From assembly GCA_900109895.1 (NCBI GenBank), contig FOBR01000001.1, positions 1 to 64,000 of the forward strand: a stretch of 64,000 nt of DNA, written 5' to 3'. Positions 1,223-8,842 of the stretch are shown piece after piece. A program made the translations under genes and the position numbers. Below the pieces are notes generated by a model. It saw only the letters and a list, made by a program, of their open reading frames with translations, had not been told where the DNA came from and did no database searches. Numbering within the stretch: the stretch's first letter is position 1; every line of letters begins with the position of its first letter. The stretch comes from a bacterium A37T11. Its GTDB lineage: Bacteria; Bacteroidota; Bacteroidia; Sphingobacteriales; Sphingobacteriaceae.

Positions 1223-1501
1223 ATGATTGAGCAAATCCGGCATAAGGGATTACGGCTGTTTTGGGAAAAGGGTGACCGATCAAAGTTGCCTGCCGCCCAA
1301 ATTGCTAAAATTCGACTTATCCTGACATTGCTAAATAGCGCCAAAGTTGTAGACGACATTAATTTTCCCGGGTCGGATTTCCATGGATTGAAAGGCGAAC
1401 TTGCCGGGTTTTACGCTGTTAAAGTGACTGGGAATTACCGGATCATTTTTCGCTTTGTCGATGAAAACGCTGTGGATATTGATTATATAGATTATCATTA
1501 G
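1223..1501 (+). CDS. higB: HigB-type toxin, RelE/ParE superfamily
   Basis: The 92-residue protein matches the HigB family in length and pattern: an early KGLRLFWEKGD, a central FPGSDFHGLKGELAGFYAVK, then GNYRIIFRF and the C-terminal DIDYIDYH. HigB toxins are ribosome-associated mRNA interferases that cut mRNA during translation and are neutralised by HigA. I chose the ATG at 1223 over an upstream one at 1190 because it gives the family's usual N-terminus. The gene is followed 14 bases later by its antitoxin, in the toxin-first order typical of higBA. Confidence 0.88.
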   Translation: MIEQIRHKGLRLFWEKGDRSKLPAAQIAKIRLILTLLNSAKVVDDINFPGSDFHGLKGELAGFYAVKVTGNYRIIFRFVDENAVDIDYIDYH

Positions 1502-1515: not shown

Positions 1516-1830
1516 ATGGCAACACAGGGCATGCCACCGGCACATCCCGGGGAAGTATTAAAAGGATTGTACCTAGACGCAATGGACAAAACAATTACGC
1601 AAGCGGCTACAGATTTGGGCATTTCCCGCAGAACACTGTCCATGCTGGTCAATGGCCATTTAGGGGTAAGTGCCGAAATGGCACTGCGATTGAGCCAGGC
1701 ATTGGGTACGACACCAGAACTATGGCTTAACATGCAGCAAAGTTTTGATTTGTGGCAAGCTAAGCAGCATATGGATCATATCCATGTTCAGGTGATGCGT
1801 ACAGTAAAAGACCGGATGGTGGCAGAATAA
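1516..1830 (+). CDS. higA: HigA-type antitoxin, XRE DNA-binding family
   Basis: The 104-residue protein shows the HigA/VapI pattern: PPAHPGEVLKGLYLD at the start, a helix-turn-helix across QAATDLGISRRTLSMLVNGH, then MALRLSQALGTTPELWLNMQ and DLWQAKQ. HigA binds HigB and represses the operon promoter. The stop codon abuts the second copy of the guide-RNA-like scaffold sequence that runs on the opposite strand, so the 3' ends of two unrelated systems meet here. Confidence 0.9.
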   Translation: MATQGMPPAHPGEVLKGLYLDAMDKTITQAATDLGISRRTLSMLVNGHLGVSAEMALRLSQALGTTPELWLNMQQSFDLWQAKQHMDHIHVQVMRTVKDRMVAE

Positions 1831-1933
1831 TGATATCCATTCCATAACAACCCTTACGGCTGAACAAGCAGTCTCTGAATTGGGTTTTGGCTATAAGCAA
1901 TAGGCTTTTGGCATGTGCAAAGCCAGCTTTTCG

Positions 1934-1954
1934 CTTTAAGCTTTCCGCTTAAAG
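1934..1954. other. perfect 8-base hairpin after the last repeat
   Basis: CTTTAAGC (1934-1941) and GCTTAAAG (1947-1954) form an uninterrupted stem with a five-base loop. On the minus strand it begins five bases after repeat A ends. No T-run follows, so it is more likely an RNA fold or protective 3' structure of the guide transcript than a standard terminator. Confidence 0.45.
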
Positions 1955-1958
1955 AATT

Positions 1959-2116
1959 CCTTTCAAACTGTGGTCATCAATAACCCAATATTCTTTCTTG
2001 ACGTTAATAGGATTGTTGTATATACCTTTCAACATGTGATCACCAATACAATGAAGGTTCGCACTCCGGTGCGCTGATTATTTATATATATCCTCTAAAT
2101 TATGTTCATCAACAAC
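1959..2116 (-). CRISPR. degenerate CRISPR-like array, three repeats
   Basis: Three related units of 25-26 bases read on the minus strand. C (2092-2116) begins GTTGTTGATGAAC and ends AATTTAGAGG. B (2025-2049) begins GTATTGGTGATC and ends TGTTGAAAGG. A (1959-1984) begins GTTATTGATGACC and ends GTTTGAAAGG. Their low ends are 66 and 67 bases apart, leaving intervals of 42 and 40 bases. The first scaffold copy ends in the same 67-base phase (2159). The repeats are diverged and few, and no cas1 or cas2 is present, so this is at most a fixed, guide-encoding array rather than an adaptive one. One interval contains a small hairpin, CGCAC/GTGCG (2060-2073). Confidence 0.5.
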
Positions 2117-2209
2117 CTAAAATAAATAGATATTCAGCGAGTATCCACACGATCTCACCCTACGGCTGAACAAGCAGCCTCCTATATTTTCAAAGACCAA
2201 AACCAGGGA

Positions 2210-3322
2210 TCATTCCTCAATTACATGAATCCCGGCCTTTTTAGCCTTATAAGCTATTTTTTCTTTCAGTCCATAATAACTCCAATTACGTAACAGGAAT
2301 TCCTCCTCCTTCGCCACTTCTTCCTTTTTAGCTTGATTAACCAGCAATAATGTGCCTGCCTGCGTTTTAATACACGTATCTATTAGGCGCCGGCTGTACA
2401 AATGAAGACGGCTATTTACATAGCTGATCTCCTTAGCCGTATAGTCGTCCAGGCTTTTCAACTTCCTTTTGCGGCCCTTACCTCCTTTATTAAAAGTAGA
2501 CCCGCGTTGCAAGCGGTGCCTGGCGGCCTGAATAGCCAGCCTGCGGTGCAAAAACTCCTCCTTATTACCGATCTGAAAATGCTCTTTCCCCACTTTTACG
2601 ACAATCGGATGTTCCAGTGATAAAGAAGCCTCCGCAATAATCGCATCATTTAAGTGGTGCTCTTCCTGCTCCATCTCAAAGGTGGCCAGCAGGTATAACT
2701 TCCCTTGATCAATTTTTAATGAACTGGTACGTAATTTCAATGTTCCGGCCAATGTACGCTGCAACAAAACCTTTTTGTCCGACCTGTCTTTGCCCAAATA
2801 GGTTTTAAACGGGATATTGAATAAGCTGAACATATAATCATGCCCTTTATCCCCATTGGCCAGTTTCAATTTATCGGCACCAAAAGGCAGCGGAATATTC
2901 CGCTTATAATTACGTAGCGATTTCTCACCCTTCCAATAAGCCTCCCTTTCGGAATTGTAAAGGCTGTTTAGCGTATTATTCAAGTTAGAAAAAATATTGG
3001 AGGGCATCTTGCCCAAAAAGTTACTGGAAAGGATTCGGTAGGTTGTATTCATCCGGGACGAGTTGAGAATACCTTCTTCATCTTTTTTCTTATCGGCAAT
3101 TTTTACTTTCACATCGTCCGTAAAATAAATTAGGTCTTTAACCCGATCTTGCACATACAGGTTAGTGAAGATCAAGTTGGCGGCCTTGGCAGCCATCCAT
3201 TGCCAGTCCCACAACTGTTGGTAATAAGCTTTGCGCTTTTCGGCATCATCGCAATCAATGTGTACCTGGATTTTCCGGGTCAGGATGATCTTTTTGGGCG
3301 CTTTTAGTGTCTCTTGTTCCAT
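2210..3322 (-). CDS. nuclease-dead Cas12f/TnpB-like RNA-guided DNA-binding protein
   Basis: The 370-residue protein has the architecture of compact Cas12f/TnpB proteins but cannot cut. Residues 250-315 carry the Lys/Arg-rich bridge-type segment (IGNKEEFL, RLQRGSTFNKGGKGRKRKLK). Residues 346-365 carry the late family motif NWSYYGLKEKIAYKAKKAGI. The RuvC-I aspartate is replaced by Lys243 in PIVVKVGKE. The RuvC-II glutamate position (about 328-329, LLLVNQ) is Val/Asn. The chain stops at residue 370, before the zinc ribbon and RuvC-III aspartate. Its start overlaps the sigma gene's stop by one base (TAATG), so the two are probably made together. Role by inference: binding of guide RNA and DNA to place the partner sigma factor. 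It resembles the dCas12f-sigmaE systems reported for Bacteroidota, as I recall them. Confidence 0.82.
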   Translation of the reverse strand: MEQETLKAPKKIILTRKIQVHIDCDDAEKRKAYYQQLWDWQWMAAKAANLIFTNLYVQDRVKDLIYFTDDVKVKIADKKKDEEGILNSSRMNTTYRILSSNFLGKMPSNIFSNLNNTLNSLYNSEREAYWKGEKSLRNYKRNIPLPFGADKLKLANGDKGHDYMFSLFNIPFKTYLGKDRSDKKVLLQRTLAGTLKLRTSSLKIDQGKLYLLATFEMEQEEHHLNDAIIAEASLSLEHPIVVKVGKEHFQIGNKEEFLHRRLAIQAARHRLQRGSTFNKGGKGRKRKLKSLDDYTAKEISYVNSRLHLYSRRLIDTCIKTQAGTLLLVNQAKKEEVAKEEEFLLRNWSYYGLKEKIAYKAKKAGIHVIEE

Positions 3323-4140
3323 TACGCAGATTTTTTATTTTTCTTAATCACCGCATGGGCTTGGATGAACAGTTGCTTCACCAACCCATCGTCCAGGTGC
3401 AGGGCTGCCGCTATTTCTTCAAAGCTGTACTGCATTTCATAACGCAGGGTGAATACCTGCGCCTGCTCTTCGCTCAGCATCCCTTCGGTCACCAAGGGTT
3501 TGCTGCGGGTGGCATTGTCCAGCCGGGCGGTATCGGCCAAGGCCGCTTTCAGGTTGGCAATGCATTGCTCCACGCGCATCCCGACCTCATAATCGGAGAT
3601 GCCGCCCAAGTGATGGGCTATGCGTTCGTAATTGAAACTGTATTTGAGGCAGAGCCGGATGAATAACTGCTGCTGTTCATTGACATGTGGAAAAAGTTGG
3701 TTGATCTTTTCCAGTTGTTGCTGTTTTTCCTGTTCCAATTGCTCCAAATAGACCAAATCCTCTTCATCGGCCTCCTCCAGTTCATAGCCCAGCATAAATT
3801 CCTGGTAGTCTTCTATGCCGTCCAGTTGCAGCATGCTCCTGTAAAAGCGGTTTATGGTCTTACCATAGTAGGCTTTACCGGCTTCCCTAATCTGCATGCC
3901 TAGGAATTCATGCAGGTGAGCCACATCCCGGATGTTCACCCGCATGAGCCAAAGCCGCAAAAAGGCTTCCTGTGCCATGCTGCTGGCCACCACTTCTTCT
4001 TTTACAAAACGGATAGCCCGGTAAGCATAGTGCTTATAATAGGCATTGTAAAAATAGTTCAACCCTGTTTCTTCACCGGCCTTTAGTCTTAGCAAGTTCT
4101 TTTCTGCCTGCTGTTTTGATTTGAGTAACGTTCCAGTCAT
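3322..4140 (-). CDS. ECF-like sigma factor, partner of the dead Cas12f-like protein
   Basis: Starting at the ATG at 4140, the protein has 272 residues, well above the usual 170-200 for ECF sigmas. Residues about 14-84 match the sigma-2 region that binds core RNA polymerase and the -10 element (AGEETGLNYFYNAYYKHYAY, then AQEAFLRLWLMR). Two regions resemble sigma-4: about 147-199 (FNYERIAHHLGG) and 218-267 (LSEEQAQVFTLRYEMQYSFE and EIAAALHLDDGLVKQLF). A linker rich in Glu and Gln (about 119-146) lies between. The extra sigma-4-like module may be the docking site for the Cas12f-like partner; that is inference. An upstream in-frame ATG at 4188 lies within the operator block and was not chosen. 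No anti-sigma gene is adjacent. Confidence 0.82.
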   Translation of the reverse strand: MTGTLLKSKQQAEKNLLRLKAGEETGLNYFYNAYYKHYAYRAIRFVKEEVVASSMAQEAFLRLWLMRVNIRDVAHLHEFLGMQIREAGKAYYGKTINRFYRSMLQLDGIEDYQEFMLGYELEEADEEDLVYLEQLEQEKQQQLEKINQLFPHVNEQQQLFIRLCLKYSFNYERIAHHLGGISDYEVGMRVEQCIANLKAALADTARLDNATRSKPLVTEGMLSEEQAQVFTLRYEMQYSFEEIAAALHLDDGLVKQLFIQAHAVIKKNKKSA

Positions 4141-8262: not shown

Positions 8263-8769
8263 ATGTATAATTATCAATTCATCCCTATAAAGACAAACAC
8301 GCCTTGGATTACAGATCATCGTGTGTTCTATTTTCAGTTAGGAAAAAGACCACGGCATGGAGCGTTGATTCAAAAAAATTACGAAGAGATAAACCGTATT
8401 TCGAGCCAAAATGGATTATCTTTTATATTTCATAAGCATCTTATCGATAATGTTTCCCAAATGGATATTGCTCTTATGGATTACGATTTTATACAAGAAA
8501 TCACCTGCATGGATGAAAAAAAATTTTACGATGAATTAGAATGGCAAATATTTACCCACCAAGCTATAGACCCTGTTTATATTGTAAGAAAATACAATGA
8601 AACTTCTTTAATCGCTTGGGGATATGATGCTTTTAAAAAAGGTAAAAGAGGATTAAGATTCCCTTTTGAATCGTTACTCCCCATTGACAATATTGTTATA
8701 GGAGAGTATTTCCAATTTGACCCCGTTGAATTATTAGCAAAACAAGGTATCTATAATATGAAAGTTTAA
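8263..8769 (+). CDS. hypothetical protein in the AT-rich island
   Basis: The 168-residue protein has no signal peptide, membrane segment or motif I recognise. It starts 17 bases after the helicase gene in the same direction and shares its AT-rich composition and codon use, so the two are probably co-transcribed. It is rich in aromatic residues and looks like a soluble mixed-fold protein. Confidence 0.6.
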   Translation: MYNYQFIPIKTNTPWITDHRVFYFQLGKRPRHGALIQKNYEEINRISSQNGLSFIFHKHLIDNVSQMDIALMDYDFIQEITCMDEKKFYDELEWQIFTHQAIDPVYIVRKYNETSLIAWGYDAFKKGKRGLRFPFESLLPIDNIVIGEYFQFDPVELLAKQGIYNMKV

Positions 8770-8842
8770 TTGGATAACAAAATGCATATGGTCACAAGAA
8801 TTACATCATAATGATGAATGGAACACAAAATAATTTTGATTT

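What the first reader, a model, noticed from the sequence alone, without database searches (positions are those of the whole stretch)
1829..2190. Two copies of a hairpin scaffold flank the array
A 17-base core (CTGCTTGTTCAGCCGTA on minus) occurs at 1855-1871 and 2161-2177 with wider similarity of about 45 bases. The copy upstream of the repeats keeps a perfect GGCTG/CAGCC stem. The downstream copy has a mismatch and ends against the higA stop. The first could be the tracr-like part of the guide RNA. The second may be a relic of a larger duplicated guide unit cut by the arrival of higBA, or a second guide whose spacer reads into higA.
Basis: partly seen in the sequence, partly recalled or inferred. 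Interest (0 to 1): 0.72.

Follow-up and report, generated by a model that had tools for sequence, protein, structure and literature searches.

The report
Guide-RNA scaffold plus its broken copy
A bacterial gene-switching system that uses a disarmed CRISPR protein and a sigma factor carries one intact guide-RNA scaffold, whose first guide matches the DNA just ahead of a nutrient-uptake operon, and one broken leftover scaffold next to a toxin-antitoxin pair.

Summary
The 17-mer lies at 1855-1871 and 2161-2177 and nowhere else in the 5.09-Mb genome. Copy A (minus 2183-2125) is the guide-RNA scaffold of a dCas12f-sigmaE (RpoE) RNA-guided transcription system; both proteins match the solved complex by sequence (PDB 9n9c/9n9q). 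A covariance model from 79 scaffolds at dCas12f loci, with clear compensatory changes, scores copy A 66 bits. Three degenerate repeats follow. Spacer 1 matches a genomic site at 25/28 positions over its exact length, with a G on the 5' side, 118 bp upstream of a SusC/SusD operon (chance about 1e-5). Copy B (minus 1877-1828) is a genuine homologue (20.6 bits, E 3e-5 genome-wide) but keeps only the first ~26 nt: its first stem has a mismatch, and the second stem, the repeat end and a guide are missing. Tandem scaffold units are usual: 43 of 80 related loci have two or more, spaced 111-3327 nt (here 306). Copy B is best read as the remnant of a second guide unit, cut at the edge shared with higBA. 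A live guide reading into higA is not supported. Known kind of system; modest novelty.

The parts
2125..2183 (-). Copy A: intact gRNA (tracr-like) scaffold; stem 1 at 2164-2179, stem 2 at 2136-2159, antirepeat AATATC about 2129-2134
   Evidence: CM R1 66.3 bits, E 1.4e-28 genome-wide; consensus fold with compensatory pairs; window fold
1828..1877 (-). Copy B: 5' fragment of a second scaffold; stem 1 with one mismatch, stem 2 and repeat end missing; reaches the higA stop
   Evidence: CM R1 20.6 bits, E 2.7e-5 genome-wide; only ~26 nt significantly alike
2081..2117 (-). Repeat R1 (degenerate); its 3' part GGATATATATAAA can pair with the antirepeat of copy A
   Evidence: 26 identities to the 36-nt Parapedobacter consensus repeat; fold
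2053..2080 (-). Spacer/guide 1, TAATCAGCGCACCGGAGTGCGAACCTTC; target upstream of a SusC/SusD operon on G000:C52
   Evidence: 25/28 match with 5'-G; expected by chance 1.3e-5 in the genome
2015..2052 (-). Repeat R2 (3' end GAAAGGTATATACAAC as in relatives)
1990..2014 (-). Spacer/guide 2; no target found
1949..1989 (-). Repeat R3, 3' end degraded (GAAAGGAATTCTTTAA)
2184..2198 (-). TCTTTGAAA element just 5' of copy A, shared with the first scaffold of several Parapedobacter and Olivibacter loci; promoter-like by position (inferred)
   Evidence: absent before copy B
2210..3322 (-). dCas12f, 370 aa, RuvC catalytic residues lost
   Evidence: profile hit to PDB 9n9c 'Nuclease-deactivated Cas12f' E 1.3e-148
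3322..4140 (-). RpoE/ECF-like sigma factor, 272 aa
   Evidence: PDB 9n9q_C 'RpoE' E 2.2e-32; Pfam sigma-70 region 4
1223..1501 (+). higB toxin
   Evidence: Pfam PF05015 6.3e-19
1516..1830 (+). higA antitoxin, convergent with the guide cluster; patchy accessory gene
   Evidence: Pfam HTH_3; found in 21 of 399 family genomes at E<=1e-20

Best explanation
The two copies are guide-RNA scaffolds of a dCas12f-sigmaE RNA-guided transcription locus. Copy A is intact. Its RNA folds into stem 1 (GGCUG/CAGCC) and stem 2 (GUGAGAUC/GAU.CUCGC); its tail (AAUAUC) pairs with the end of repeat R1 (GAUAU), so that guide 1 is presented to dCas12f (stems 1 and 2 shown by covariation; the third pairing predicted; loading inferred). 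dCas12f with guide 1 would bind the G-flanked site upstream of a SusC/SusD operon, and sigmaE would start transcription there (target match shown; binding and activation inferred from the solved family). Copy B is the 5' stub of a second tandem guide unit, whose rest was lost at the junction with the separately acquired higBA pair. It should not make a working guide (inferred).
For: Proteins match the solved dCas12f and RpoE. The scaffold is present at 77 of 80 related loci, 160 model hits in all; 43 loci have two or more copies, with spacings of 111-3327 nt around the window's 306. Seven of 12 consensus pairs have compensatory changes. The closest relatives have tandem copies: Olivibacter XZL3 has 4 and Parapedobacter tibetensis 3. 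Guide 1 matches its target at 25/28 over the exact spacer length, with a 5'-G, 118 bp before a TonB-plug/SusC gene followed by SusD. B lacks stem 2. Other stubs of the scaffold occur at cluster edges in L038 and L078. higA homologues align only up to 1811 or less and none has a scaffold behind it.
Against: No expression data. Guide 2 has no target, and two guides of the 81%-identical Olivibacter locus gave no convincing target. Guide 1 has 3 mismatches to its target. No other genome of the same genus is held, so the empty or intact state of unit B could not be seen. Internal scaffolds of relatives also lack the TCTTTGAAA element, so its absence before B proves nothing.
Confidence: 0.85

Rival explanations
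1. Copy B is a live second guide whose spacer reads into higA, so the system acts on higBA.
For: B keeps most of stem 1 and its loop, the most conserved part of the scaffold.
Against: No stem 2, no TATACAAC-type repeat end, and stem 1 has a mismatch. The sequence after it is higA coding DNA; its only other genomic matches have 3 mismatches, as expected by chance.
Confidence: 0.04
2. Copy B is kept as a 3' boundary hairpin (terminator or processing site) of the array transcript.
For: Truncated scaffolds also sit at the distal edge of clusters in Parapedobacter koreensis (L038) and Pedobacter cryoconitis (L078).
Against: The terminator scan finds no terminator on the minus strand; most clusters have no such stub; the local fold of B is different and weaker.
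Confidence: 0.05
3. The two copies are an unrelated repeat or a chance similarity.
For: Only 24-26 nt are clearly alike.
Against: A 17-mer found only twice in 5.09 Mb, 306 nt apart and in the same orientation, with a covariance-model score for B above all other genomic places.
Confidence: 0.02

Closest known systems
dCas12f-sigmaE (RpoE) RNA-guided transcription systems of Bacteroidota (PDB 9n9c, 9n9m, 9n9o, 9n9q; a 2025 report of the Sternberg group, recalled from memory and not in the library)
   Same: dCas12f and RpoE neighbours, scaffold sequence and structure as at related loci, 5'-G next to the target, target upstream of SusC/SusD
   Different: Scaffold is followed by a decayed three-repeat array instead of one fused guide; a second, truncated scaffold is present
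Type V-F CRISPR-Cas12f with tracrRNA
   Same: Cas12f family by sequence, tracr-like scaffold and repeat-spacer array
   Different: RuvC residues lost, sigma factor partner, degenerate repeats, target in own genome
TldR (TnpB-derived RNA-guided transcription factors; PMC13418256)
   Same: Nuclease-dead relative used for gene control
   Different: Regulates flagellin expression, no sigma factor partner known to me; guide RNA not compared here

Membership tests
dCas12f-sigmaE RNA-guided transcription | dCas12f homologue | tested here: met
   E 1.3e-148 to 9n9c over its whole length
dCas12f-sigmaE RNA-guided transcription | Loss of RuvC catalytic residues | tested here: met
   The Asp of the conserved GVDLG motif of active Cas12f aligns with S233; the Glu segment is not aligned; protein ends before RuvC III (which residues are catalytic is from memory)
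dCas12f-sigmaE RNA-guided transcription | Adjacent RpoE-type sigma factor of the same subfamily | tested here: met
   9n9q_C RpoE E 2.2e-32
dCas12f-sigmaE RNA-guided transcription | Conserved guide-RNA scaffold at the locus | tested here: met
   Copy A 66.3 bits
dCas12f-sigmaE RNA-guided transcription | Guide match with 5'-G upstream of a gene in the same genome | tested here: met
   25/28, G at -1, 118 bp before the susC start; one guide only
dCas12f-sigmaE RNA-guided transcription | Guide-dependent transcription start | not testable with these tools
   needs RNA-seq or a reporter
Complete guide unit (copy B) | Stem 2 and repeat end before a spacer | tested here: not met
Type V-F adaptive CRISPR | cas1/cas2 adaptation genes | not tested
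   only genes near the locus were looked at

The most novel reading that the evidence does not exclude
dCas12f-sigmaE may act as a switch that starts transcription at or beyond an intrinsic terminator in the leader of its target genes. In the window's genome the guide-1 site is followed at once by a strong terminator-like hairpin and then susC. In Flavobacteriaceae a near-invariant guide matches a conserved, structured, terminator-bearing ~150-nt leader that lies before SusC genes and before the system's own rpoE, and that has no Rfam match.
Probability: 0.3. Interest if true: 0.75.

Novelty: new member of a known kind. Interest (0 to 1): 0.42.

Why it matters
It names a specific chromosomal target (a SusC/SusD uptake operon) for a native RNA-guided transcription system in a further genus, and shows that these loci carry tandem scaffold units that multiply, decay and get truncated. 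The scaffold covariance model makes such units easy to find and to separate into live ones and relics.

Tried and rejected
Library searches for a dCas12f-sigma paper found none. Rfam has no family for the scaffold or the C52 target region. An exact pattern for the scaffold core gave nothing in viral contigs, and the copy-A/R1/spacer-1 stretch gave nothing in plasmids. Guide 2 has no target. Two Olivibacter guides have no target at 2 or fewer mismatches. Weak scaffold hits elsewhere in the genome (14.9 bits and below) were read as chance; the two printed (C26, C14) show only GAGGCTGCT- or AAGGCTGCT-like starts. A same-genus comparison was impossible.

Full report
What was checked. All relevant features are on the minus strand, in the order dCas12f - copy A - R1 - spacer 1 - R2 - spacer 2 - R3 - copy B, with higA convergent. 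The similarity is strong over about 26 nt; the claimed 45 bases are reached only by a gapped alignment whose extra part is no better than shuffles.

What system it is. The 370-aa protein matches PDB 9n9c 'Nuclease-deactivated Cas12f' over its full length. The Asp of the GVDLG motif of active Cas12f aligns with Ser233, and the Glu segment and third RuvC motif are gone. The neighbour is an RpoE-like sigma factor matching chain C of 9n9q. The published report on these complexes is known to me from memory only; it is not in the library searched.

What copy A is. In relatives from Parapedobacter, Olivibacter, Sphingobacterium, Pedobacter and Flavobacteriaceae the same element, GAGGCTGCTTGTACAGCCGTAGGGTGAG...CACTCACTAAATAC, lies at the dCas12f locus, downstream of the gene or some way upstream of it. 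An alignment of 79 copies folds into two stems, with compensatory changes in 7 of 12 pairs. The covariance model gives copy A 66.3 bits; copy A is one of the 79 sequences, so this score is partly by construction, but the element was found in the relatives independently. In Flavobacteriaceae the scaffold is fused to a third short stem and a guide (ATGC..GCATATACAAC + guide); that stem varies as ATGC/GCAT, ATGT/ACAT and ATAC/GTAT (sequences, read by eye). In the window the tail AATATC can pair with R1 GATAT, the same helix with further changes, across a longer loop. Pairing of tail and R1 is a prediction.

What the array does. Spacer 1 (28 nt, 2080-2053) matches G000:C52:112842-112815 (minus) at 25 of 28 positions. 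The match covers the spacer length, starting at the end of R1 and ending at the start of R2, and has a G immediately 5'. By chance 1.3e-5 such matches are expected in the genome. The site is 118 bp upstream of a 1052-aa TonB-plug protein of SusC type, followed by a SusD protein and a thioredoxin-like protein. Binding and activation are inferred from the family. Spacer 2 has no target and R3 is degraded, so probably only guide 1 is in use.

What copy B is. The model, which was built without B, finds it with 20.6 bits (E 2.7e-5 genome-wide), above the rest of the genome, but only through the 5' part. The first stem has an A-C mismatch and the second stem and repeat end are missing. Tandem scaffolds are usual: 43 of 80 loci have two or more, and the spacing of 306 nt is ordinary. 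The nearest relatives have three or four. Stubs comparable to B lie at the outer edge of the cluster in L038 and L078 beside convergent genes. HigBA is patchy in the family (21 of 399 genomes), its nucleotide homology ends between ~1755 and ~1811 depending on the relative, and none of the five relatives' higA tails that were printed shows a scaffold. So B is the remnant of a second unit with its boundary at the higBA edge. Whether higBA arrival cut it, or filled a gap already there, cannot be told without another genome of the genus.

Side result. In five Flavobacteriaceae genomes searched, the near-invariant guide GCGTGGGCTCTCTTATTT has several extra matches per genome, above the reversed-pattern control in total; many lie in a conserved ~150-nt element with compensatory helices and a terminator-like hairpin, absent from Rfam 15. 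Its model finds it directly upstream of rpoE-dCas12f in 10 of the 58 related loci searched, in Flavobacteriaceae and Pedobacter. The local guide matches it with 1-3 mismatches in 17 in five of six Flavobacteriaceae loci but not in Allomuricauda taeanensis or Pedobacter. The window's own target is also followed by a terminator-like hairpin (-22.9 kcal/mol, z -3.1), though it is not the same element. This suggests autoregulation and start of transcription at or past a terminator; it is a lead, not a demonstration.

Noticed in passing
L183 1446-1595 (-), L175, L182, L187, L188, L111 4905-5055, L109 4940-5090, L083 4990-5144: A conserved ~150-nt structured element with a terminator-like hairpin lies upstream of SusC genes, ECF sigma genes and the rpoE-dCas12f operon itself; the near-invariant Flavobacteriaceae guide matches one arm of that hairpin, and Rfam has no family for it.
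   Followed up: partly
L153 about 8750-8815 (-), just 3' of the guide-1 target: The guide-1 target is followed at once by a strong intrinsic-terminator-like hairpin before the susC start.
   Followed up: partly
L036 8448-8885 and 9998-10284, L038 9437-10587, L095 8216-9905: In Parapedobacter, PIN and RelE-type toxin-antitoxin genes sit inside the guide cluster, with gene ends 11-60 nt before a scaffold copy in four cases.
   Followed up: partly
L071 5297-7073, L076 7094-8573, L084 2946-4828: Some Pedobacter and Sphingobacterium loci carry 6-10 tandem scaffold units, apparently with different guides.
   Followed up: no
window 1934-1954: An inverted repeat CTTTAAGCTTTCCGCTTAAAG lies between R3 and copy B; origin not determined.
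   Followed up: no
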